From the NCBI GenBank assembly GCA_027592745.1, contig JAQCLG010000007.1, forward strand, positions 1-47,928: 47,928 nucleotides of DNA. The letters are read 5' to 3'. Positions 6,492-41,298 of the stretch are shown here, one piece after another. This stretch comes from Pseudomonadota bacterium. Lineage in GTDB: Bacteria > Pseudomonadota > Alphaproteobacteria > SP197. Position 1 is the first letter of the stretch. Each line of letters starts with the position of its first letter. The notes beneath the pieces are model-generated. The model had not been told where the DNA came from. It ran no database searches and saw nothing but the letters and a program-made list of their open reading frames with translations. Made by a program: the position numbers and the translations under genes.

Positions 6492-9400
6492 ATGGGCATG
6501 ACCCGCCTGGCCGTCGATATCGGCGGCACCTTCACCGACGTGGTTCTCGAGCGCGACGGCGCACTGCACGGCACCAAGGTTCCAACCACGCCCGAGGGCC
6601 CCCAGCGCGGCTTCCTGGACGGCGTGTTGCGCCTGCTGCGCGAAACCGGCACGGCGCCCGCTGCCATCGGCTCGATCATCCACGGCACGACCCTGGCGAC
6701 CAACGCACTGATCGAGCGCAAGGGCGCCCTCACGGCGCTGATCACCACACGCGGCTTCCGCGACAGCCTGGAGATCGGCTACGAGGCGCGCTTCGACCAG
6801 TACGACATCCAGCTCGAGAAACCCGAGCAGCTCGTGCCGCGCCACCTGCGCTTCACGGTCGAGGAGCGTCTGGCCGCCGACGGCCGCGTGCTCAAGCCGC
6901 TGGACGAGGCCGGTCTTGCAGCGCTCGTCCCGCTGCTGCGCGAGGCCGGGGTCGAGGCCGTGGCCATCGGCTTCCCGCACGCCTATGCCAATGCCGATCA
7001 CGAACGGCGCGCCGGGGCGCTCCTTGCCGGCCTGCTGCCGGAGATCCCGATCAGCCTGTCCAGCGAGGTCTGCTCGGAAATCCGCGAGTACGAACGGCTC
7101 TCGACCACGGTCGCCAACGCCTATGTCCGGCCCAGGATGGCGGGTTACCTCGATGCCCTGGCCCGCGACCTGGCCGGTGCCGGGCTTTCCTGCCCGCTCT
7201 TCATGGTGACCTCGGCGGGCGGCATCACGACGCTGGAGGCGGCCATGGCCTTTCCCATCCGCCTGGTCGAATCGGGTCCCTCGGGCGGCGCCGTGCTGGC
7301 CGAGATCACCGCCGAGCAGAACGGCGCCCGCGACGTGCTCTCCTACGACATGGGCGGCACCACGGCGAAGATCTGCCTGATCGGCGACTACCGCGCCGCC
7401 ACGGCGCGCGAGTTCGAGGCGGCACGCACCGCCCGCTTTGCCAAGGGCAGCGGCATCCCCCTGCGCATCCCCGTGGTCGAGATGATCGAGATCGGCGCCG
7501 GCGGCGGCTCGATCGCCGCCGTCGACAGCCTGCAGCGTGTCGCCGTCGGGCCGCACAGCGCGGGCGCAATGCCGGGTCCGGCCTGCTACGGCAACGGCGG
7601 CGACTGGCCCACCGTGACCGACGCCGACCTCGCCCTGGGCCGCCTGGATGCCGAACGATTCGCCGAGGGCCACCTGCGCCTCGATGCCGGCGCGACCGAA
7701 CGGGCGATCGCGGCCGTCATCGCCGCGCCGCTCGGCCTGAGCGGTCTGGACGGTTCCCGCGCAATCTGCGAGATAGTCGACGAGGCCATGGCCAATGCCG
7801 CCCGGGTCCACGCCGTCGAACACGCCCGCGACCTGCGCACCGCGACGATGATCGCCTTCGGCGGCGCCGGGCCGCTGCATGCCGGGCGGCTGGCCGAAAA
7901 GCTCGGCATCGCCCGCATCGTCGTGCCGGCCAATCCCGGCGTCGGCTCGGCCGTGGGCTTCCTCTCCATGCCGGTCTCCTACGAGGTCGTGCAGAGCCGC
8001 TACATGCTGCTGTCGCACTTCCGCGCCGGCGAGATCGCCGAGGTCCTGGCGGGACTGACCGCAACCGCGCAGGCCGTGGTCGCCCGTGCCGCGCCCGAGC
8101 AGCCGCGCACGATCCGGCGCAGCGCGCTGATGCGTTACATGGGCCAGGGCCACGAGGTCGAGATCGCGCTGCCCGACGGCGAGGTGACGGACGCAACGGC
8201 GCAGGCGCTGCGCGAGGCCTACGGCCGCCGCTACGCCGAACTCTACGGCCGCGCCATGACCGCGGGCGAAATCGAGATCCTGACCTGGACCGTCACCGTG
8301 GCGACCCGGCGGGCGCCGGTGGCGACCGTCGCGGCCGTGCCCGCACGACCCGCTGCCGGGCCGATCGGACGGCGTGCCGTCTTCGATCCCGGATCGGGCA
8401 GGATGCACGACACGCCGGTCTACCTGCGCGATACCCTGGTCCCCGGCATGGCCTTCGACGGCCCGGCGCTGGTCGTCGAGGGCCAGACCACGACCGTGGT
8501 TCCCGCGAGTTTCCGCGCCGGCGTCAACGGCGGCGGCCATCTCGTGCTCGACCGCATCGACACCCAGGCGACCAACGCCGGCGAAGCCGACGACATCCGC
8601 CTGCAGGTCATGTGGAACCGGCTGCAGGCCGTGGTCGACGAACAGGCCGGGGTGCTGATGCGCACCGCGTTCAGCCCGATCGTGCGCGAATCGGGCGACC
8701 TCTCGGTCGGCGTCTTCGACCTGGAGGGCCGCATGCTCGCGCAGGCGGTGACCGGCACGCCGGGCCACGTCAACACCATGGCCGCGGCCTGCGCGAAGTT
8801 CTTCGATGCCTTCCCGCGCCAGACCATGCGGCCGGGCGACATCTACCTCACCAACGACCCCTGGATGGGCTCGGGCCACCTCAACGACTTCGTCGTCGTG
8901 AAACCCTGCTTCCTCGGCGAAAGGCTGGTCGGCTTCGTCTCCTGCACCAGCCACCTGGTCGACATCGGCGGGCGCTGCCTGGGTCCCGACGGCAGCGACG
9001 TCTTCGACGAAGGCCTCTACGTGCCGCCGATCCGCCTGGTCGATGGCGGCAACCTGGCCGAACTCTTCATGACGCTGCTGAAGGCCAACTCCCGCTCGCC
9101 CGAAGCGGCCGAGGGCGACGTCCACGCCCTGATCGCCTGCTGCGAGACCGGCGAGAAACGCCTGGTCGCCATGATGGCCGATTTTGCCATCGACGACCTG
9201 GGCCCGCTCTCCGAGCGCATCCTGGCGACCTGCGAACGTGCGACCCGCGCGCGTATCGCCGCGCTGCCCAAAGGCACCTTCGACTTCGCGATGACGGTCG
9301 ATGGTTACGACGATCCCATCACCATCGAGGCCCGCCTCACCATCGCCGGCGACGACCTCCATCTCGACTTCCACGCCTCGGCGCCGCCCTCGCCCCACGG

Positions 9401-9617
9401 CATCAACGTGCCGCTGAACTATGCCGAGGCCTACACGGTGTTCGGCATCAAGTGCGTCATCGCCCCCGACATCCCCAACAACCACGGCTCCCTGCTGCCG
9501 ATGCGCGTCACTGCAACGCCCGGCACGATCCTGAATGCCGCCAAGCCGGCACCGGTCTGCTCGCGCCACATCCTGGGCCAGCTCCTGCCCGATGTCGCGC
9601 TGGGCTGCCTGGCCTAG
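6492..9617 (+). CDS. HyuA-HyuB fusion hydantoinase/5-oxoprolinase, stopped by in-frame TAG
   Basis: The reading frame encodes a fused ATP-dependent hydantoinase/oxoprolinase. Residues 1 to about 690 are the HyuA part, with the actin-like ATPase start DIGGTFTDVVLE, HGTTLATNALIERKGA, YDMGGTTAKICL, GAGGGSIA and FGGAGPLHA. About 700 onward is HyuB (MRTAFSPIVRESGDLSVGVFD, TNDPWMGSGHLNDFVV). The family opens cyclic amides such as hydantoins, 5-oxoproline or N-methylhydantoin with ATP. Codon 1042 is TAG at 9615-9617. The same frame continues with typical HyuB sequence to 10220, so the full protein would be about 1242 residues, the normal size for fused enzymes. A racemase-like gene follows. The TAG replaces what is usually a polar residue such as Gln (CAG) after GCLA. 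Confidence 0.88.
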   Translation: MGMTRLAVDIGGTFTDVVLERDGALHGTKVPTTPEGPQRGFLDGVLRLLRETGTAPAAIGSIIHGTTLATNALIERKGALTALITTRGFRDSLEIGYEARFDQYDIQLEKPEQLVPRHLRFTVEERLAADGRVLKPLDEAGLAALVPLLREAGVEAVAIGFPHAYANADHERRAGALLAGLLPEIPISLSSEVCSEIREYERLSTTVANAYVRPRMAGYLDALARDLAGAGLSCPLFMVTSAGGITTLEAAMAFPIRLVESGPSGGAVLAEITAEQNGARDVLSYDMGGTTAKICLIGDYRAATAREFEAARTARFAKGSGIPLRIPVVEMIEIGAGGGSIAAVDSLQRVAVGPHSAGAMPGPACYGNGGDWPTVTDADLALGRLDAERFAEGHLRLDAGATERAIAAVIAAPLGLSGLDGSRAICEIVDEAMANAARVHAVEHARDLRTATMIAFGGAGPLHAGRLAEKLGIARIVVPANPGVGSAVGFLSMPVSYEVVQSRYMLLSHFRAGEIAEVLAGLTATAQAVVARAAPEQPRTIRRSALMRYMGQGHEVEIALPDGEVTDATAQALREAYGRRYAELYGRAMTAGEIEILTWTVTVATRRAPVATVAAVPARPAAGPIGRRAVFDPGSGRMHDTPVYLRDTLVPGMAFDGPALVVEGQTTTVVPASFRAGVNGGGHLVLDRIDTQATNAGEADDIRLQVMWNRLQAVVDEQAGVLMRTAFSPIVRESGDLSVGVFDLEGRMLAQAVTGTPGHVNTMAAACAKFFDAFPRQTMRPGDIYLTNDPWMGSGHLNDFVVVKPCFLGERLVGFVSCTSHLVDIGGRCLGPDGSDVFDEGLYVPPIRLVDGGNLAELFMTLLKANSRSPEAAEGDVHALIACCETGEKRLVAMMADFAIDDLGPLSERILATCERATRARIAALPKGTFDFAMTVDGYDDPITIEARLTIAGDDLHLDFHASAPPSPHGINVPLNYAEAYTVFGIKCVIAPDIPNNHGSLLPMRVTATPGTILNAAKPAPVCSRHILGQLLPDVALGCLA

Positions 9618-10220
9618 GTCGTGCCCGATGCCGTGCCTGCCGAAGGCGCCGCCACGCTATGGGACCTGCCGATGAAGGGCCTCGTCGAGGCCACGGGGCA
9701 ACCCTTTGCCGCCGAACTGGTGTTCAACGGCGGCACCGGCGCGCGGCCGTCCAGGGACGGGCTTTCGGCCACCGCCTTCCCGAGCGGCGTCATGGGCAGC
9801 CTGGTCGAGATCACCGAAAGCACGACGCCGATCCTGGTCACCCGGCGCGAACTGCGCCCCGGTTCGAGCGGACCGGGAGAGTTCCGCGGCGGCCTGGGCC
9901 AGGTGATCGAGATCGAGGCCCTGCCCGGCACGCCGCTGGTCGTCTACGGCACGGTCGATCGCGTGCACTTTCCCGCGCGCGGCCGTGCAGGCGGCCAGGC
10001 CGGCGCCTGCGGCCGTTTCGAACACAGCGCCGGCACGCCCTTCTCCGGCAAGGGCTCCTGCACCCTCAGGCCCGGCGAGCGGCTGACCGTGTTCACCCCC
10101 GGCGGCGGCCATGGACCGCTGGCGGCGCGCCGGCCCGAACGTCACGCAAGGGACCGGCGCGACGGTCTCATCGGCGCCGATGCCGCGTCCGGCGGCACGG
10201 CCGGAAATGGAGACGACTGA
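9618..10220 (+). pseudogene. C-terminal part of the HyuA-HyuB fusion, after the in-frame TAG
   Basis: This 200-codon stretch is in the same frame as the preceding gene and directly continues HyuB. It contains VPAEGAATLWDLP, a NGGTGARPSRDG segment typical of HyuB, GSSGPGEFRGGLGQ, and a Gly-rich GGGHGPL near the end. There is no frameshift, gap or other lesion at the junction. If translated separately, it would have to start at an internal codon such as GTG 9621, and no ribosome-binding site is seen. Three readings remain open: a recent nonsense mutation, a base-calling error, or read-through of TAG. The stop at 10218-10220 lies one base before the ATG of the next gene. Confidence 0.75.
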
Positions 10221-16485: not shown

Positions 16486-17826
16486 ATGACCTCAGGATCC
16501 GACCCCTCCCGCCGGTTCAGCCGGCGCCAGGCTCTCTCCCTCGGCGCCGCGGGCGCCGTCACGCCCGCCTTGGCGTACGCGGCCCCGGCGAGCGACACCG
16601 ACGTCGTCATCGTGGGCGCGGGCGCGGCCGGCATCGCGGCCGCCCATGCGCTGCGCGCCGCGGGCGTCGAGCATGTCCTGATCGAGGCGGGCAACCGCAT
16701 CGGCGGACGGGCATGGACCGAATCGGTGACCTTCGGCGTGCCCTTCGACCATGGCGCCCACTGGGTGCAGAACCAGTGGCGCAACCCCCACTTCGCGCGG
16801 GGCGAACAGAGCGGCTACCGCTTCTATCCCGCACGCGACGACTACCGCATCTTTGCCGACGGAACGGAGGCGACCTCCGGCGAGGTCGATGCGCTCTGGC
16901 GCACCTGGGAGAACGTCGAGGAGGCGATTTCGCAGGCCGGCGACAACGGCTGGGACGTCTCCCCCGCCAGCGTCGCCCCCGACGGCGGGACCTGGACAAG
17001 GACGGCCTGGTACTACATCGGCCCCTGGGAGATGGGCAAGGACATGGATGCCTTCTCCTGCGTCGACTGGTGGAACTCGGCCGACAGCGTCGACTGGTAC
17101 TGCGCGGCGGGTTACGGAACCCTGGTCGCCGACCATGGCGCCGGACTGCCCGTCTCCCTCGACACCGCGGCGAGCGCGATCCGCTGGGACGGACCCGGCG
17201 TGGCGGTCGAGACCAACCGCGGCACGATCCGCGCCAGGGCGGTGATCGTCACCGTCTCCACCGGGGTCCTGGCCTCCGGCGCCATCGCCTTCCAGCCCGG
17301 CCTGCCGCAGGAGACGCTCGAAGCCTTCCACGGCATCTCCATGGGCGACTACAACCACATCGCGCTGCGCTTCAGCCAGGACATCTTCGCCATGGGCGAG
17401 GACGGCTACCTGTTTCACCGGGTCGACGACAGCATGGAAGCCTTCGGCGCCCTGACCAACGCCAGCGGCACGGGCATCGCCTATTGCGATGTCGGCGGCA
17501 GCTTCGCGCGCGACCTCGAGCAGGCGGGTCAGGACGCCGCGATCGACTTCGTCATGGAAAGGCTGCGCGGAATGCTGGGCAGCGAGGTCGACCGCACCTT
17601 CCTGGGCGGCACCGCCACGGCATGGACCTCCGACCCGCTGTTCCGCGGCTGCTACGCCTCGGCCCTCCCCGGTGCCTGGCCCCTGCGGCGGGTCCTGCGC
17701 GAGCCGGTCGGCGAGCGCATCTTCTTTGCCGGCGAGGCCTGCCATCCCGAGATGTGGGCCACCGTCGGCGGCGCCGATCTCTCCGGCAGCCAGGTGGCTG
17801 CCACAGTCATCGACACCCTGGCCTAG
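16486..17826 (+). CDS. Tat-exported FAD-dependent amine oxidase
   Basis: This flavin monoamine oxidase family protein has 446 residues. The N-terminus carries a twin-arginine signal, SRRFSRRQALSLGAAG, followed by a hydrophobic stretch and ALAYAAP, so the folded flavoprotein should be exported. The FAD-binding dinucleotide fold is VVIVGAGAAGIAAAHALRAA with IEAGNRIGGRAWTE at about residues 40-80. The C-terminal FAD motif is IFFAGEACHPEMWATVGGAD. It oxidises an amine to imine and hydrogen peroxide; the substrate is unknown. The divergent TetR gene is the likely regulator. The TAG stop is contributed by the edge of the palindromic repeat that begins at 17825. Confidence 0.88.
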   Translation: MTSGSDPSRRFSRRQALSLGAAGAVTPALAYAAPASDTDVVIVGAGAAGIAAAHALRAAGVEHVLIEAGNRIGGRAWTESVTFGVPFDHGAHWVQNQWRNPHFARGEQSGYRFYPARDDYRIFADGTEATSGEVDALWRTWENVEEAISQAGDNGWDVSPASVAPDGGTWTRTAWYYIGPWEMGKDMDAFSCVDWWNSADSVDWYCAAGYGTLVADHGAGLPVSLDTAASAIRWDGPGVAVETNRGTIRARAVIVTVSTGVLASGAIAFQPGLPQETLEAFHGISMGDYNHIALRFSQDIFAMGEDGYLFHRVDDSMEAFGALTNASGTGIAYCDVGGSFARDLEQAGQDAAIDFVMERLRGMLGSEVDRTFLGGTATAWTSDPLFRGCYASALPGAWPLRRVLREPVGERIFFAGEACHPEMWATVGGADLSGSQVAATVIDTLA

Positions 17827-17886
17827 AGTAAATCTTCCGCCGGCGGAATCGCTTCGCGATTGCGCAGAAGCATGTGAATCCGCTCT
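17825..17886. repeat. Palindromic intergenic repeat, copy A
   Basis: This is an imperfect palindrome of about 62 bases, bounded by AGAG and CTCT, with a central AATCGCTTCGCGATT hairpin and GCAGAAG in one outer arm. It resembles copies at 19789-19850 and 41372-41433, and the different palindrome at 41297-41358 shares its end sequences. It provides the TAG stop of the amine oxidase gene. It has no coding content and looks like a non-autonomous repeat family of the chromosome. Confidence 0.8.
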
Positions 17887-17971
17887 GGCAGGTCTCTTGG
17901 CATGGCGGTTGGCGGCGCCATACTTCTGCGGCGATCGCTGTTATCTTCCAGGGGACCTGCCAGAGCGCCCC

Positions 17972-19627
17972 ATGTCTGCCGCCACCACCATCATCGTTGC
18001 GCCGCGCGAGCGGTTCCGCTCGATCCTGACCTCGCTCGAATCGCTGTTTGCGACGGTACCCCGCGAAACGCCGGTCGTCGTCGAGGGCTGTTCGCCACCG
18101 GATGTCCGGGCGGCGCTTGCCGTCCTGCAGGCCGCGCGCCCCTTCACCTGGATCGCGCGCGACCACTTCGTCACGCCCCACGAGGCGCGCAACATCGGCT
18201 TCGAGACGGTGACGAGCGAGTTCGTCGTCTTTGCCGACAACGACATGATCTACGAGCCCGACTGGCTTGCCCGCCTGGAGGAGAACGCCCGGCGCAATAC
18301 CAGCGACATGGTCGCCCCGGCGATCTGCATCGGCCCGCCGCGTGCGACCACGGTCCATCATGCCGGAGGCTCCCTGGTGATCGACGGCACGCCCGACCGG
18401 CCCCATGTTACCGAACGGCACCGCATGAAGGACGAGGCGCTCGCCGCATTGCGGGACCAGCCCCCGAACGAGGACAACGAAGTCGTCGAGTTCCACTGTT
18501 TCCTGGCACGTTCAGCCTTCATCGCCCGGCATGGCCCCCTCGACGAACGGCTGATTACCCGCGAGCAGATCGACATCGCCCTGCGCGCAGCCCTTGCCGG
18601 TGCCCGCGTGACCTTCGAGGCCGGCGCCGTGGTCACCTACGATGCCCGCGTGCCGTTCGAGCGCGACGACCTCGTCTACCACCTCTTCCGCTGGTCCCAC
18701 GATCTGGCCCGCCGCTCCCTGGACGTCTTCCGCGCCACCTGGGGCACCGAGACCGATGGCACCCGCGTGCTGCACGGCTGGATCGCCAGGCACCGGCTGC
18801 GCGCGATCACCAGCGCCTATCCCGACGAGGCCGCGGCCATGGGGCCCAAACGCTTCCGCACGGAGTTCGCCGCGCCGCTGGAAGCGCGCCTGACCGCACA
18901 AGCCCTGGCAACACGCAGCGATCTGCCGGCGCAGCATCATCCCCGGGCGCTTCCGCGACAGAAGCGCCTGGCCTTCTTTTCCCGCCATGTCGCCGCTGCG
19001 CCCAGTCCGCCTTTCCTGCATCTGGGCGCTGCCCCGGGCAAGTCACGGCCCATGATCGTTGCCAGCATGGCGACGATGCCCTCACGCCACGCCACCCTGC
19101 AAGAGGCGCTGGGCTCGATCCTGCCCCAGGTCGATCGCCTATTCCTGTTCCTGGACGGCTTCGGGGAAGCCGCGGTCGTGCGCCACCCCAGGATCGTGCC
19201 GCTGCGCTCCGAGGCATTCGGGGATCTGGGCGCAGGCGGCAAGCTGCTGGGCCTGACCCTGTACAATCCTGGCGACCTCTACCTGACGCTCGACGACGAC
19301 ATTCGTTATCCCCCGGATTTCGTCGCGCGTATGTGCAGCCACCTGGAAACCACGAAGGGCATGGCTGCCTTCGGCGTTCACGGCAGCGTGCTCAAACCGG
19401 CCCTGAAGTCGTACCTGCTGGATCGCCAGGTCGCCCTGCGCAGCCATGGCCGTCCCCGGCCCAGCAGGGTCGATGTGCTGGGCACCGACGCGGTGCTGTT
19501 CTCCACCGCGCGCCTGGCGTTCGATGTCCGCGAATGGCAGCACCGCAACATGGTCGACCTGCAGTTTGCCGTGGAGTGCGCGCAACGCGGCATCGACCGG
19601 TTCACCGTCGCCCGGCCCGCCGGCTAG
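17972..19627 (+). CDS. Two-domain glycosyltransferase, stopped by in-frame TAG
   Basis: From ATG 17972 the frame gives 551 residues up to TAG at 19625-19627. The first half is a GT2-like nucleotide-sugar transferase: ARNIGFETVTSEFVVFADND contains the DND metal-binding triad near residue 88, with a later REQIDIALRAALAGARVTFE. The second half starts near residue 360 (MIVASMATMPSRHATLQEAL) and has a second acidic triad LTLDDDIRYPPDF near residue 440 plus LGTDAVLFSTA, so it is another transferase-like domain. After the TAG the frame continues for 46 more residues. The gene is alone between two palindromic repeats (17825-17886 and 19771-19850). The acceptor, probably a surface glycan, is not known. 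Confidence 0.8.
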   Translation: MSAATTIIVAPRERFRSILTSLESLFATVPRETPVVVEGCSPPDVRAALAVLQAARPFTWIARDHFVTPHEARNIGFETVTSEFVVFADNDMIYEPDWLARLEENARRNTSDMVAPAICIGPPRATTVHHAGGSLVIDGTPDRPHVTERHRMKDEALAALRDQPPNEDNEVVEFHCFLARSAFIARHGPLDERLITREQIDIALRAALAGARVTFEAGAVVTYDARVPFERDDLVYHLFRWSHDLARRSLDVFRATWGTETDGTRVLHGWIARHRLRAITSAYPDEAAAMGPKRFRTEFAAPLEARLTAQALATRSDLPAQHHPRALPRQKRLAFFSRHVAAAPSPPFLHLGAAPGKSRPMIVASMATMPSRHATLQEALGSILPQVDRLFLFLDGFGEAAVVRHPRIVPLRSEAFGDLGAGGKLLGLTLYNPGDLYLTLDDDIRYPPDFVARMCSHLETTKGMAAFGVHGSVLKPALKSYLLDRQVALRSHGRPRPSRVDVLGTDAVLFSTARLAFDVREWQHRNMVDLQFAVECAQRGIDRFTVARPAG

Positions 19628-19768
19628 CTGGTGGAACTGGAGGTCGATCAGCCCGACAGCATCGCCCGCGCGCTCAATGCAGACGACAGCGTGCAGACCC
19701 GGCTGGCGCAGGACTATCTCCAGCGCTTCGGCGGCATCGCTGCGCAACGCGCCAAGGCGCAGGGTTGA
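19628..19768 (+). pseudogene. C-terminal tail of the glycosyltransferase after the in-frame TAG
   Basis: This 46-residue continuation (LVELEVDQPDSIARAL then NADDSVQTRLAQDYLQRFGG) is in frame with the glycosyltransferase and reads as a helical C-terminus with low-cost, protein-like codons. It ends in TGA at 19766-19768, two bases before the next repeat block. A Trp (TGG) in place of the TAG would give PAGWLVEL, a natural-looking join. It has no start codon of its own with a ribosome-binding site. Confidence 0.65.
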
Positions 19769-35643: not shown

Positions 35644-36789
35644 ATGGACGCCGACATCTTCGATCCCGCGCACTACGCCGCCTGCCGCCTTCCCGTGCTG
35701 GAGGCCCAGACCCTGCCGGCCTGGTGCTACACCGATCCCGCATTCTTCGCGGCCGAGAAGGAGCGGGTCTTTGCCCGCGCCTGGCAGTTCGTCGGCCGCA
35801 TCGACGAGGTGCCCCAGGGCGGTTGGCTCGCCGTCGAGACGGTGGGCGGGCCGGTGCTGCTGCTGCGGGGCAAGGACGGCACGCTCGGCGCCTTCGCCAA
35901 CAGCTGCCGGCACCGCGGCGCGCGCCTGGCCGAGGGCTCCGGTTCCTGCCTGCGCCTGGTCTGCCCCTACCACGCCTGGAGCTACCGGCTGGACGGCAGC
36001 CTGGGCGGCGCCCCGGGCATGGACGAGACGGCCGGCTTCGACACCGCCGACTGGGGCCTGACACCCCTGCGCTTCGAGGCCTGGGCCGGTTTCGTCTTCG
36101 TCTGCTACGACGCGGCCACAGCCCCGCTCGCGACCTACTTCGGCGACATGACGGAACGCCTTGCCAGCCACCGCTTCGAGGATTTCGTCTGCGTGCGCCG
36201 GCGCGACTACCGGGTGCGCGCCAACTGGAAGCTGATCGCCGAAAACGCCATGGAAACCTACCACACCGGCACCGTGCACAGCGCCTCGCTGGGCCAGCAG
36301 GCCGCGCGCGAGCTGGAGACGACCGGCCACTGGGACGCCATCCAGGTGCTCGACGAGGCCTCGATCGGCGTGCTGCCCGGCCAGCAGGCGCCCTTCCCGC
36401 CGGTTCCCGGCCTGTCGGAGGAAGCCCGCGCCGGAACCTACTTCACCACCCTGCATCCCAACACGCAGTTTGCCTGCGTCCAGGACTGCATGTGGTGGCT
36501 CAACTTCCATCCGCTCGGCCCCGACCGCACCCTGCTGCGCGTCGGCCAGTGTTTCCCGCGCACGACGACGCAACAGCCCGGTTTCGACGCGCATGCCGCG
36601 CCCTACTTCCACCGCTGGGACACCGGGATCGACGAGGACAATACGATCTGTGAGGCCCAGCAGGCCGGCCTTGCCAGCAGCCTGCGCCGGCCCGGCCGCT
36701 TCTCCTCGCGCGAGCGCGCGGTCCATCGCCTGAACAACTGGCTGCTCGACCAGGTCCTGGGCGATGCAGGCGCGCAACGGCCCCTTTGA
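35644..36789 (+). CDS. Rieske aromatic ring-hydroxylating oxygenase, large subunit
   Basis: This 381-residue cytoplasmic oxygenase has the Rieske 2Fe-2S ligands in CRHRGA (about residue 88) and CPYHAW (about 107). The C-terminal catalytic domain has the mononuclear-iron motif region NWKLIAENAMETYHTGTVHS, containing the conserved Asn and two His. This branch includes choline monooxygenase and aromatic dioxygenase alpha subunits; the exact substrate is not clear. No reductase, ferredoxin or small subunit is next to it, so it probably borrows electron carriers. The following EthD and HyuA genes suggest a catabolic cluster. Confidence 0.88.
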   Translation: MDADIFDPAHYAACRLPVLEAQTLPAWCYTDPAFFAAEKERVFARAWQFVGRIDEVPQGGWLAVETVGGPVLLLRGKDGTLGAFANSCRHRGARLAEGSGSCLRLVCPYHAWSYRLDGSLGGAPGMDETAGFDTADWGLTPLRFEAWAGFVFVCYDAATAPLATYFGDMTERLASHRFEDFVCVRRRDYRVRANWKLIAENAMETYHTGTVHSASLGQQAARELETTGHWDAIQVLDEASIGVLPGQQAPFPPVPGLSEEARAGTYFTTLHPNTQFACVQDCMWWLNFHPLGPDRTLLRVGQCFPRTTTQQPGFDAHAAPYFHRWDTGIDEDNTICEAQQAGLASSLRRPGRFSSRERAVHRLNNWLLDQVLGDAGAQRPL

Positions 36790-36886
36790 ACCTGCAGTCG
36801 CTGCTTCCGACAGGCTCGCCACGCCAGTTCCGGGCGGCTAGCATGACGGGGTTGCAATCGGCCAGTCGCGAAGGGGGAAACGAACG

Positions 36887-37198
36887 ATGGCGGATGTACT
36901 GGTGCTCTACGGCCAGCCCGATGACCCGGCCGCGTTCGACGACTACTACGCCAACATCCACACGCCCCTGGCGCGCCAGATGCCGCACCTCAAGGAGCTG
37001 CGCGTCAGCAAGGGCGAGGTCACCGTCGTCGGCAGCGAACGTTCCCTCTACCTCGTCGCACGCCTGAGCTTCGCCAGCATGGCCGACCTGCGCGCCTCCA
37101 TGGCCTCGCCCGAGGGCAAGGCCACGGCCAACGACGTGCCCAACTTCGCCACCGGCGGCGTCGAGCTGCTGATCGTCGACACCGCCGACAAGCTGTAG
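36887..37198 (+). CDS. EthD family protein
   Basis: This 103-residue protein is a ferredoxin-like alpha/beta barrel of the EthD type. It begins ADVLVLYGQPDDPAAFDDYY and has IHTPLARQMPHLKELRVS, then LYLVARLSFASMADLRASMA. EthD was found with a cytochrome P450 that degrades ethyl tert-butyl ether; homologues serve as small helpers or cyclase-like enzymes in oxygenase pathways. A strong GGGGGAAACG site precedes ATG 36887. It follows the Rieske gene by 97 bp and converges with HyuA, so a shared catabolic job is likely. Confidence 0.85.
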   Translation: MADVLVLYGQPDDPAAFDDYYANIHTPLARQMPHLKELRVSKGEVTVVGSERSLYLVARLSFASMADLRASMASPEGKATANDVPNFATGGVELLIVDTADKL

Positions 37199-37219
37199 AC
37201 AGCAGCGGCAGACGCCGGC

Positions 37220-37720
37220 CTACCCCAGCGCGATCATGTGGTTGCCCCAGGGGTCGACGGTCAGGCGATCGTCCGGCCCGGCATAGACCGTGGTGGTCTC
37301 CTCCTCGATGAGCAGGGGGCCTTGCAGGGTCATGCCCGCGGCGAGGTCGGCACCGCGATAGACCGGCGTTGCCATCATGCCGCGTTCGCCGTCGGCGAAG
37401 GCCTGGCGCAGTTCGACCGGTTCGGGCGTCCGCATCGGCCTGCCGTCGCGCGCCGGCGCGATGCGCGGGATCAGGCCGCGGCCCGTGACGTGCAGGGCCG
37501 CCAGCTCGATCTCTCCGTCGGGCTGGATGTGGCCGAACATGCGCTGGTGGGTCGCCTCGAAGGCGGCACGCATGGCGGCGCGGTCGAAGGCCGGCGCGGC
37601 CACGCGGATCGACCACTGCTGGCCGCGGTAGCGCAGGTCGGCGCTGCGCTCCAGCGTCGCCGCATCGCCCGTGAAACCCTCGGCCGAAAGCGCTTCGGCC
37701 GCCTCGGCGTCGAGCGCCTG
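37220..37720 (-). pseudogene. C-terminal third of the second HyuA, after in-frame TAG 37721
   Basis: After the TAG at 37721-37723 the HyuA frame continues with QALDAEAAEALSAEGF, RSADLRYRGQQWSIRV, PDGEIELAALHVTGRGLIPR and ends with LIEEETTTVYAGPDDRLTV and GNHMIALG. This is a normal HyuA C-terminus ending in TAG at 37220-37222. An ATG at 37603 would be the first internal start but lacks a ribosome-binding site. There is no frameshift, so the piece is either the remains of a broken gene, or part of a protein made by TAG read-through. Confidence 0.7.
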
Positions 37721-38017
37721 CTAGGCGGTGGCGATGCGGCTGTCCTCCAGCCTGTCGAGATCGCCGATCAGCACGCGCATGACATCGCGCCGGATGTCGG
37801 CGTTGAGCATGCCCAGGGCGCAGAAGGCGCCGGCCTGGCGCGGCACGTGTACCGTGCTGCAGCCCAGGCGGCGGGCGACGGCGCTGCCGTGCATCGGCCC
37901 GGCGCCGCCGGCGGCGACTAGGATGCAGCGCGCCGGATCGTGGCCGCGCTCGATGCTGATCTTCTCCACCGCGTGCAGCAGGTTCTGCTCGAGCAGGCGC
38001 ACGATGCCCGCTGCGGC
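37721..38017 (-). pseudogene. Middle part of the second HyuA, between two in-frame TAG codons
   Basis: This 98-codon segment continues the same frame between TAG 38018-38020 and TAG 37721-37723. It reads AAAGIVRLLEQNLLHAVEKI, then ERGHDPARCILVAAGGAGPM and HGSAVARRLGCSTV, which are core HyuA sequences that hold the conserved AAGGAGPMHG loop. The absence of any other lesion in this stretch, including an intact Gly-rich loop, argues against long decay. Confidence 0.7.
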
Positions 38018-39289
38018 CTACTCGACGACGAGGCCGAGCGGCCCCGCGACATGTTCCTGGAGCGCCGCGCGTGCCAGGTCGAGGTCCAGGCTGACGGCAC
38101 CGCCGGCATAGGCGCCGGGGCGCAGGCGGCCCAGCACCAGCAGGGCGTCAGTCACCGTCGGGCGCGTCCCGCCCAGGCCGTAGCAGGCCGGCCCCGGCAT
38201 GGCCCCCGCCCCCTGCGGGCCGACGTGCAGCATGCCGCCCGCATCGACATAGGCGATGGTGCCGCCGCCCGCACCCACGGTATGGACGTCGATGGCCGGC
38301 GTGGCGACGTGGTAACCGGCAATCAGCAGGTCGTCGGACAGCGTGACGTCGCCGCCCTGCATCATCACGACATCGCAGCTCGTGCCGCCGATCTCCATGG
38401 AGATCAGGTTGTCGCTGCCGGTCTGGACCGCGACCAGGTTGAGCGCACCCACCGCCGCGGCCGGGCCTGAGAGCACCAGGCTGACCGGCCGGTCGGCGAC
38501 CTGGGCGACCGATGCGGCACCGCCGTTCGACTGCACCAGCAGCATCGGGTGGGCCAGGCCCAGCCCGGTCAGCTCGCGGTCGAGCGCCACGAGATAGGGC
38601 ACCACGCGCGGCGCCAGGCAGGCGTTGACCACGGTGGTCGAGCCGCGTTCGTATTCGCCCATGATCGGCGCGATGGCGCTGGAAAGGCTGATCCAGGGCA
38701 CGTCCAGCACCTCGCCCAGGATGGCGCCGACCTGCTCCTCGTGGCTGCCGTCGAGGAAGCTGTTCATCAGGCAGACCGCGACCGCCTCGACGCCCTCGGC
38801 GCCGAAGATCTCTGCGGCGGCGCGCACGCCCTCGCCGTCGAGCGGCGTCACCTCGTTGCCGTCGCGGTCGAGGCGGCCGGCGACGCCAAGACGCAGGTAA
38901 CGCGGCACCAGCACGGGGGCAAAGGGCGTGCGTTGGTCCCACATGTCCTCGCGCTTGCCCCGCCGGATCTCCAGGCTGTCGCGGAACCCTTCCGTCGCGA
39001 TCAGGCCGACACGGGCGCCCTTGCCTTCCAGCATGGTGTTGGTCGCTACGGTCGAGCCGTGGACGAAGAGCGCGCAGCCGGCCAGCAGCGCACCGGAGGT
39101 CATGCCGAACCGGCCGGCCATCTTCCCAACCGCGGCGATGACGCCGCGCGCGGGATCGTCGGGCGTCGAGGGCACCTTGGCGACGAACAGCGCCCCGGCA
39201 TCGTCGTGCAACACCAGGTCGGTGAAGGTGCCGCCGACATCGACGCCGATGCGCCAGGGCGCGGCAGGCTGGGGTTCGGCGCTGGTCAT
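38018..39289 (-). CDS. HyuA-type hydantoinase/oxoprolinase subunit, N-terminal part, stopped by TAG
   Basis: From ATG 39289 the frame encodes 423 residues of HyuA up to TAG at 38018-38020. Motifs are VDVGGTFTDLVLHD, HGSTVATNTMLEGKGA, EGFRDSLEIRRGKREDMWDQ, SLSSAIAPIMGEYERGST, SMEIGGTSCDV, VGAGGGTIAYVDAGG and GPACYGLGGTRPTVTDA. The full frame to 37220 is 690 codons, the usual HyuA length, with two internal TAG codons (424 and 523). No HyuB gene follows, unlike the fused enzyme at 6492. It could act in ATP-dependent opening of a cyclic amide made by the Rieske/EthD pathway. Confidence 0.85.
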   Translation of the reverse strand: MTSAEPQPAAPWRIGVDVGGTFTDLVLHDDAGALFVAKVPSTPDDPARGVIAAVGKMAGRFGMTSGALLAGCALFVHGSTVATNTMLEGKGARVGLIATEGFRDSLEIRRGKREDMWDQRTPFAPVLVPRYLRLGVAGRLDRDGNEVTPLDGEGVRAAAEIFGAEGVEAVAVCLMNSFLDGSHEEQVGAILGEVLDVPWISLSSAIAPIMGEYERGSTTVVNACLAPRVVPYLVALDRELTGLGLAHPMLLVQSNGGAASVAQVADRPVSLVLSGPAAAVGALNLVAVQTGSDNLISMEIGGTSCDVVMMQGGDVTLSDDLLIAGYHVATPAIDVHTVGAGGGTIAYVDAGGMLHVGPQGAGAMPGPACYGLGGTRPTVTDALLVLGRLRPGAYAGGAVSLDLDLARAALQEHVAGPLGLVVE

Positions 39290-39472
39290 GGGCTCTCCGG
39301 GCGATACGGGGGCCGACTTTCGCCGCTCCCACCCGGCCGGGCAAGCCGCTTTCCCCTGTCGTGCGATCTTCCGGGAACAGGGCGGATTCAGGTGCCGCCG
39401 CCGAACCTGCCATGGTTCCCCGCCGGGACGATCCGCACTATCGTCGCCCCTTCCAGCCAGAAGGCGCGGACC

Positions 39473-40423
39473 ATGGCGGATCGTGCCGCAACGCCTGCAG
39501 ACCTGCCCCGGACCCCGACGCAACTGCCCTCGCCGCTCAAGGGCACGCTGGTCGGCACCATTGCGGTCATCGTCTGGGCGACGGGCGGCCCGGTCATCAC
39601 CTTTGCCCCCGGCATTCCGCCGTTCCAGCTGATCGCCATGACCTTCGTCGCCTTTTTTCTGGCCCTGCTGCCGGTCTGGCTGGTGCGCGGCGAGAACATC
39701 GCGGCGAAGTTCCGTATGCCCGCGCGGGTCTGGATCGTCGGCACCCTGGGTCCCTGGGGCTACACGGTCTTCTTCTTCCATTCCTACCAGCTGATCCCGC
39801 CGGTCCATGCCAGCCTGATCCTGATGAGCTGGCCCATCGTGCTGCTGCTCGCCAACGCCGCGTTCAAGGGCCGGCGCATCCGCTGGTGGCATGGCGCGGG
39901 CGCTGCCGCGGGGTTCCTCGGCGCGGCGGTGCTGGTGGTCGGGCGCAACGACGGCATCGCGGGATTTTCCGACGGCTCGATCTGGGGTTACCTGATGGCC
40001 GCCGCCGGGGCGCTGACCTTCTGCGCCTATTCCTTTGCGCGCAGTTCCTGGCCCCAGGTGCCGACCGATGCCGGCGCCCTGTTCTGCCTGGCCGGTGCCG
40101 GCCTGGCGCTCGTCATCCATCTCCCGCTCGAGACAACCGTGATGCCCGATGCGACGGGCTGGGCGGTGGTCGCCTGTTTCGGCCTGCTCAGCGTCACGGT
40201 CTCGCTCTACACCTGGGACTACGGCATGAAATACGGCCAGGTCCGCGCCCTGGTCTCGCTCACCTACCTGACACCCCTGATGACCGCCTTCATCCTGATC
40301 GCGATCGGCGCCGACCAGCTCAGCACGGCCGTGGCGACCGCCTGTTTCCTGATCGTGGGCGGCGCGTTCCTGGGCAGCAAGGACATGTTCACCCGCGCCG
40401 GGCGGGCCGGGGCCGACGGATGA
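39473..40423 (+). CDS. EamA/DMT family transporter, first of a tandem pair
   Basis: This 316-residue inner-membrane protein has about ten hydrophobic segments in two EamA repeats. Clear marks are VIVWATGGPVITFAPGIPPF in the first helix and a HASLILMSWPIVLLLANAAF segment in the first repeat. The second repeat contains LLSVTVSLYTWDYGMKYGQV and SLTYLTPLMTAFILIAIG. Members export or import amino acids, metabolites or drugs. Its stop overlaps the start of the next DMT gene by four bases (ATGA), so the two proteins are made together and may form a heterodimer or serve separate substrates. Confidence 0.88.
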   Translation: MADRAATPADLPRTPTQLPSPLKGTLVGTIAVIVWATGGPVITFAPGIPPFQLIAMTFVAFFLALLPVWLVRGENIAAKFRMPARVWIVGTLGPWGYTVFFFHSYQLIPPVHASLILMSWPIVLLLANAAFKGRRIRWWHGAGAAAGFLGAAVLVVGRNDGIAGFSDGSIWGYLMAAAGALTFCAYSFARSSWPQVPTDAGALFCLAGAGLALVIHLPLETTVMPDATGWAVVACFGLLSVTVSLYTWDYGMKYGQVRALVSLTYLTPLMTAFILIAIGADQLSTAVATACFLIVGGAFLGSKDMFTRAGRAGADG

Positions 40424-41298
40424 GGCCTACCCTGGCGACCCTAGTCGGGGGCAGCGCCATCCTGATGTGGGGCGGCCTGGCGGCGCTGACCGCAACCGCC
40501 GGCGCGGTGCCGCCGCTGCTGCTGACGGCGCTGACCTTCGCCATCGGCACGGTCGTGCTGCTGCTCGCCAGCGCCCTGCGCGGCGTGCGCCTGCTCGCGC
40601 TGGCGCGCCAACCCCTGCGTGTCTGGCTGCTCGGCATCGGCGGCCTGTTCGGCTACCACGTCCTCTACTTCACCGCCCTGCAGAACGCGCCCACGGTCGA
40701 GGCCAGCCTGATCGCCTTCCTCTGGCCGCTGCTGATCGTGCTGCTTTCGGGCCTGCTGCCCGGCGAACGGGTGCGCTGGTTCCACATCCTGGGCGGCATC
40801 GCGGGTTTTGCCGGTTCGGCGATGCTGATGACCGGCGGCCGCTTCGACGGTTTCCGGAGCGAGTATGCGCTGGGGTACGCCGCCGCCCTGGGCTGCGCCC
40901 TGACCTGGTCGGGTTACTCCGTGCTGTCGCGCCGCCTGGGCCAGGTGCCCAGCGACATCGTCGGCCTGTTCTGCGGCGCCACCGCCGTGCTCGCACTGAT
41001 CGCCCATGGCGTCACCGGCGAGGCCACGCGCTGGCCCGAAGGGGCACAGTGGCTGGCCGTGATCGGCCTGGGCATCGGCCCGGTGGGCCTGGCCTTCGTC
41101 ACCTGGGACATCGGCGTCAAGCGCGGCGACATCCGCCTGCTGGGTGTTGCCTCCTACGGTGCGCCGCTGATCTCGACCCTGCTGCTGATCGCGCTCGCCA
41201 TGGCGCCGGGCAGCAGCACGGTGCTGGCCGCCTGCGCCCTGATCGTGGGCGGCGCCGTCATCGCCTCGGGCGACAGCCTGCGCCGCCGCAAGGGCTAG
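40420..41298 (+). CDS. EamA/DMT family transporter, second of a tandem pair
   Basis: This 292-residue protein again has about ten membrane segments and two EamA repeats (SAILMWGGLAALTATAGAVP, TVEASLIAFLWPLLIVLLSG, VGLAFVTWDIGVKRGDIRLL, SYGAPLISTLLLIALAMAPG). It is clearly related to its upstream partner, so the pair comes from a gene duplication. The WDIGVKRG and WDYGMKYG signatures occupy the same place in both. A rare CTA Leu codon followed by G lies at 40441. The stop (TAG) is supplied by the edge of the palindromic repeat that starts at 41297. Confidence 0.88.
   Translation: MRPTLATLVGGSAILMWGGLAALTATAGAVPPLLLTALTFAIGTVVLLLASALRGVRLLALARQPLRVWLLGIGGLFGYHVLYFTALQNAPTVEASLIAFLWPLLIVLLSGLLPGERVRWFHILGGIAGFAGSAMLMTGGRFDGFRSEYALGYAAALGCALTWSGYSVLSRRLGQVPSDIVGLFCGATAVLALIAHGVTGEATRWPEGAQWLAVIGLGIGPVGLAFVTWDIGVKRGDIRLLGVASYGAPLISTLLLIALAMAPGSSTVLAACALIVGGAVIASGDSLRRRKG

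What the first reader, a model, noticed from the sequence alone, without database searches (positions are those of the whole stretch)
37700..38040. Two in-frame TAG codons inside one HyuA gene
The gene at 39289-37220 keeps one continuous HyuA frame across TAG 38018-38020 and TAG 37721-37723. Core motifs lie between and after them (AAGGAGPMHG, EEETTTVYAGPDDRLTV). Two stops with no other visible damage is unusual for a decaying gene, where frameshifts would also be expected.
Basis: partly seen in the sequence, partly recalled or inferred. Interest (0 to 1): 0.75.

Follow-up and report, generated by a model that had tools for sequence, protein, structure and literature searches.

The report
Amber stops inside conserved bacterial genes
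A gene for a hydantoinase-type enzyme carries two premature stop codons yet is otherwise undamaged, and the same uncultured bacterium has some three dozen similar TAG/TAA (almost never TGA) stops in the third of its genome that was examined, which hints that this strain may partly read these stops through, although ordinary recent gene loss or assembly error is not excluded.

Summary
One HyuA frame (39289-37220, minus strand) is interrupted only by TAG at codons 424 and 523. The same-genus ortholog is intact (90% identical) with GAG (Glu) and TGG (Trp) there; other relatives have E/D and Y/F. So the TAGs are not one recoded residue. dN/dS before, between and after the stops is 0.14, 0.09 and 0.16: no decay beyond the stops.

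The gene is not alone. In 1.17 Mb of this draft genome I found 36 in-frame stops in otherwise conserved genes: 26 TAG, 9 TAA, 1 TGA. Two more TAGs lie in this window (9615, 19625). Frameshifts are rare (about 4), seven genes carry two stops, and nearly all affected genes are accessory. Relatives show 1 such stop in 637 kb. This fits poorly with plain decay (too few frameshifts and TGAs) and with random base errors (no excess missense, stops clustered by gene).

TAG is not reassigned: 20-23% of genes still end in it. My best reading is recent, partial readthrough of UAG/UAA. Proof is missing: no suppressor tRNA among 38 tRNA genes (about 8 appear unassembled), and prfA (RF1) falls in a contig gap. 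Confidence is moderate.

The parts
37220..39289 (-). HyuA (hydantoinase/oxoprolinase A) gene, one frame with two internal TAG codons
38018..38020 (-). TAG codon 424, inside the Hydantoinase_A domain; GAG (Glu) in the same-genus ortholog
37721..37723 (-). TAG codon 523, at the start of the C-terminal domain; TGG (Trp) in the same-genus ortholog, Tyr/Phe in others
6492..10220 (+). HyuA-HyuB fusion gene whose HyuB domain is interrupted by TAG at 9615-9617
   Evidence: the same-genus ortholog has Gln
9615..9617 (+). In-frame TAG in the HyuB part of the fusion gene
17489..19765 (+). Glycosyltransferase-like gene with an in-frame TAG near its end
19625..19627 (+). In-frame TAG; TGG (Trp) in the same-genus ortholog

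Best explanation
The two TAGs are single-base nonsense substitutions that arose in this lineage after it split from its same-genus relative. They belong to a genome-wide set of UAG/UAA nonsense codons in mostly non-essential genes. They persist because UAG and UAA are partly read through in this strain (natural nonsense suppression), giving enough full-length HyuA, while UGA and frameshifts are not rescued. The most likely agent is an ochre-type suppressor tRNA (anticodon UUA, reading both UAA and UAG), or less likely a weakened release factor 1. Shown: the stops, the intact relatives, continued constraint beyond the stops, the TAG/TAA excess over TGA, the scarcity of frameshifts. Inferred: readthrough itself, its efficiency, its agent and the amino acid inserted. 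TAG still works as a normal terminator, so this is not a code reassignment.
For: dN/dS after the stops equals that before them in HyuA, and segments between two stops in six double-hit genes have 0.139 against 0.157 in 95 control genes. 36 in-frame stops in 1.17 Mb are 26 TAG, 9 TAA and 1 TGA; so few TGAs has P 0.001-0.013 under random nonsense mutation, and 14 transition changes gave TAG but none gave TGA (P 0.008). Only about 4 frameshifts were found where about 27 would be expected at parity with nonsense. Seven genes have two stops where about one is expected, without excess missense change in those that could be tested. Relatives have 1 such stop in 637 kb.
Against: No CUA or UUA tRNA among the tRNA genes found. 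Terminal TAG use is normal and genes ending in TAG have no extra backup stops, so any readthrough is recent or weak. No stop seen here is shared with the same-genus genome. Low dN/dS is also expected if the stops are very young. One gene (PPK2 on L149) has both a TAG and a frameshift, so some real decay occurs. Classing stops as internal or terminal was partly by my reading of gene context.
Confidence: 0.4

Rival explanations
1. Ordinary recent loss-of-function: a burst of nonsense mutations in dispensable genes, so young that nothing else has decayed. HyuA is a fresh pseudogene and the enzyme is not made.
For: Nearly all affected genes are accessory. All stops are absent from the same-genus genome. 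Residues replaced are one-step mutational neighbours with many C>T changes. Terminal TAG use is unchanged. PPK2 on L149 carries both a stop and a frameshift.
Against: Frameshifts, normally at least as common as nonsense in new pseudogenes (general knowledge), are about ten times rarer here. TGA is depleted. Genes with two stops show no excess of missense change.
Confidence: 0.35
2. Assembly artefact: single-base consensus errors in a draft metagenome-assembled genome, perhaps in low-coverage accessory regions, created the stops.
For: Draft genome of 263 contigs with the excess seen in only this genome. Errors of this type would give few frameshifts. The TAG:TAA ratio fits random substitutions given codon usage.
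Against: About 28 missense errors should accompany each nonsense error, but private missense changes are not in excess in affected genes (70 against 86 in the relative) and are milder than random, nor in the ribosomal operon. Only one of 444 acceptor and T-stem tRNA pairs is a mismatch. Stops cluster by gene, avoid core genes, and TGA is depleted.
Confidence: 0.2
3. Gene-specific regulation: programmed readthrough or internal re-initiation at these two TAGs in HyuA alone.
For: GTG codons that could start translation follow each stop (38002 and 37603).
Against: The first stop splits the Hydantoinase_A domain; orthologs are single open frames; similar stops occur in about 30 unrelated genes.
Confidence: 0.05

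Closest known systems
In-frame stop codons in functional bacterial genes (Belinky et al. 2021, PMC7918605)
   Same: In-frame stops, including CAG/TAG sites, in genes that keep low dN/dS; readthrough proposed
   Different: Here many stops are concentrated in one genome, almost only TAG and TAA, absent from the nearest relative; the paper focused on stops shared by two or more species
Natural nonsense suppression by suppressor tRNAs in standard-code bacteria (reported in 0.3% of genomes, PMC13092985)
   Same: Would explain tolerated UAG/UAA nonsense mutations while the standard code stays in use
   Different: No suppressor tRNA was found in the assembled part of this genome
UAG/UAA reassignment to an amino acid (for example ciliate Gln codes; PMC8629427)
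   Same: In-frame TAG and TAA in conserved genes
   Different: Mixed residues at the sites, normal terminal TAG use, no cognate tRNA found
HyuA, hydantoinase/oxoprolinase subunit A (Pfam PF05378, PF01968, PF19278)
   Same: All three domains in order, conserved motifs kept
   Different: Two TAG codons; no HyuB gene next to this copy in the window

Membership tests
HyuA / hydantoinase-oxoprolinase A | Hydant_A_N, Hydantoinase_A and Hydant_A_C domains in one frame | tested here: met
   (with X at the stops); orthologs
Genome-wide UAG reassignment | TAG absent or rare as a terminal stop | tested here: not met
   145 of 618 in this genome against 23 of 112 and 16 of 80 in relatives; rplN-TAG-rplX
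Genome-wide UAG reassignment | One amino acid at homologous positions | tested here: not met
   Gln, Trp, Lys, Glu, Tyr, Ser and others
Genome-wide UAG reassignment | Cognate tRNA (CUA) present | tested here: inconclusive
   none among the genes found; several tRNAs appear unassembled
Genome-wide UAG reassignment | RF1 (prfA) lost or altered | tested here: inconclusive
   prfA not in the assembly, but its locus is a contig gap
Natural UAG/UAA suppression | UAG and UAA tolerated in frame, UGA and frameshifts not | tested here: met
   (statistical, on about 30% of the genome)
Natural UAG/UAA suppression | Suppressor tRNA or altered release factor | tested here: inconclusive
Natural UAG/UAA suppression | Full-length product made | not testable with these tools
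   needs proteomics or a reporter assay
Decaying pseudogene | Relaxed selection beyond the stop | tested here: not met
   for HyuA and between stops; very young pseudogenes would also look like this
Decaying pseudogene | Frameshifts or deletions alongside stops | tested here: not met
   none in HyuA; about 4 genome-wide against 36 stops
Pyrrolysine-type UAG decoding | pylS and pylT genes | not tested
   no CUA tRNA was found; pylS was not searched for

The most novel reading that the evidence does not exclude
This alphaproteobacterium is caught in an ambiguous-decoding stage of stop-codon evolution: UAG and UAA act both as terminators and as poorly specified sense codons, with nonsense mutations accumulating in accessory genes because a suppressor tRNA or a lost or weakened RF1 rescues them.
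Probability: 0.15. Interest if true: 0.85.

Novelty: new member of a known kind. Interest (0 to 1): 0.5.

Why it matters
If UAG/UAA are read through here, many genes that annotation pipelines would call pseudogenes are active, and the organism would be a natural example of the ambiguous intermediate proposed for stop-codon reassignment, which a large code-inference screen says it cannot detect directly (PMC8629427). If it is not readthrough, the case warns that one genome can hold dozens of stop-only broken genes that mimic recoding.

Tried and rejected
1) TAG as one recoded amino acid: rejected, mixed residues and normal terminal TAG use. 2) Loss of RF1 as established: not accepted; prfA is missing from the assembly but its locus falls in a contig gap with both neighbours truncated. 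3) Suppressor tRNA: none found by Rfam at E up to 10, by ARAGORN, or by a pattern search whose two hits were no more than its control gave. 4) Unusual anticodon stems: Val-UAC has an open top pair and one Met tRNA a mismatch; nothing pointing to UAR reading. 5) Backup stops after terminal TAGs: no enrichment. 6) My first alignment mixed strands for minus-strand loci and was redone. 8) Two W-to-TAA sites looked like two-step changes but could come from Tyr in the ancestor; not used as evidence.

Full report
The observation. The minus-strand frame 39289-37220 is a HyuA gene with exactly two internal stops, TAG at codon 424 and at codon 523. Read with X at the stops it matches Hydant_A_N, Hydantoinase_A and Hydant_A_C; the first stop lies inside the Hydantoinase_A domain. 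The window is one contig of a 3.85 Mb, 263-contig draft genome; its same-genus relative is deposited as an uncultured Rhodospirillaceae bacterium.

Residues at the two codons. The same-genus ortholog (90% identical) and orthologs from seven more genomes are open throughout. Codon 424 is GAG in the same-genus ortholog and Glu or Asp in the rest; codon 523 is TGG there and Tyr or Phe in the rest. The two TAGs therefore stand for two unlike residues. Nei-Gojobori dN/dS against the same-genus ortholog is 0.143 before, 0.091 between and 0.157 after the stops, with similar values for a control pair. There is no frameshift.

Not a single case. A codon-usage scan of 580 kb from the same genome found many stops with coding signal on both sides in one frame, with an excess of TAG; they fall in recognisable genes. 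I extended the sample to 1.17 Mb and checked sites against the same-genus genome. Leaving out real gene ends, 36 in-frame stops remain: 26 TAG, 9 TAA, 1 TGA. About 30 genes are hit: transporters (ProW-type, MATE, DctP, solute-binding protein, amino-acid permease, CitMHS), regulators (histidine kinase, LysR, adenylate cyclase, response regulator), accessory enzymes (phytochelatin synthase, CoA-transferase III, PPK2, di-haem oxidoreductase, glycosyltransferases, flavodoxin-fold reductase) and malic enzyme. Pfam domains run across most of the stops. In this window two further genes are hit: the HyuA-HyuB fusion at 6492-10220 (TAG 9615) and a glycosyltransferase-like gene (TAG 19625). Some assignments (L099 14372, L135, L122, L268, L275) rest on family resemblance and coding signal, because no same-genus ortholog was at hand.

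Where they come from. Same-genus codons at the TAG sites are mainly CAG (Gln, about ten) and TGG (Trp), plus AAG, GAG, Tyr and Ser; TAA sites are mainly Tyr. These are mostly one-step neighbours of the stops, as nonsense mutation would give. Relatives show 1 such stop in 637 kb, so the phenomenon is special to this genome.

Not a code change. TAG ends 145 of 618 (by a later count 149 of 743) strongly coding ORFs, as in relatives, including rplN just before rplX. There is no enrichment of backup stops.

Against random base errors. Random substitutions yield about 28 missense per nonsense change. In the ribosomal operon the genome has 26 private changes at conserved columns against 20 in the relative, mostly conservative. 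In ten affected genes it has 70 against 86, with single-base changes milder than random expectation. tRNA stems are clean. Seven genes carry two stops where about one would be expected. A modest uniform error rate cannot be excluded by any one of these tests alone.

Against plain decay. Frameshifts number about 4 with a detector of 0.47 sensitivity, against 36 stops with 0.63 sensitivity. At parity 27 would be expected. The TGA deficit has P between 0.013 and 0.001 depending on the transition bias assumed. Segments between two stops in double-hit genes keep dN/dS 0.139, against 0.157 in controls. One gene, PPK2 on L149, has both a TAG and a frameshift, so true decay exists too.

Mechanism. UAG and UAA are tolerated about equally while UGA is not. 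That pattern fits an ochre-type suppressor tRNA better than loss of RF1, since RF2 would still read UAA (general knowledge). No such tRNA was found, but only 37 tRNA genes are recovered by Rfam (ARAGORN adds one) against 45 in a near-complete family member. prfA is absent from the assembly although present in the same-genus genome; its neighbours hemA and prmC are cut off at two contig ends, so its absence is most simply an assembly gap. The agent remains unknown.

Known background. In-frame stops with low dN/dS and proposed readthrough have been described across bacteria (PMC7918605), and suppressor tRNAs occur in 0.3% of bacteria with the standard code (PMC13092985). This would be a new, unusually stop-rich member of that kind. 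I put natural suppression at 0.4, recent stop-type gene loss at 0.35 and assembly artefact at 0.2.

Noticed in passing
window 9615-9617 (+): A second hydantoinase gene in the window, a HyuA-HyuB fusion, is also interrupted by an in-frame TAG in the middle of its HyuB domain; the same-genus relative has Gln.
   Followed up: yes
window 19625-19627 (+): In-frame TAG in a glycosyltransferase-like gene; the same-genus relative has Trp.
   Followed up: yes
L112 and L113 (G000:C128 and C194 contig ends): hemA and prmC are cut off exactly at two contig ends, so prfA (RF1) between them is missing from the draft genome.
   Followed up: partly
L178:1359 (same-genus genome): One in-frame TAG in a conserved gene of the same-genus relative, where the present genome has Gln; the only such case seen in 338 kb of that genome.
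   Followed up: no
L149:10880 and about 11606: A PPK2 gene with both an in-frame TAG and a probable frameshift; the clearest ordinary pseudogene in the sample.
   Followed up: partly
G009:C12:31536-32602: In another family member prfA matches in several fragments in different frames, so RF1 may be broken or badly assembled there; two further relatives (G007, G023) lack a full prfA match.
   Followed up: no
window 35644-41298: This HyuA copy has no HyuB next to it; neighbours are a Rieske dioxygenase, an EthD-domain protein and two EamA transporters on the opposite strand.
   Followed up: no
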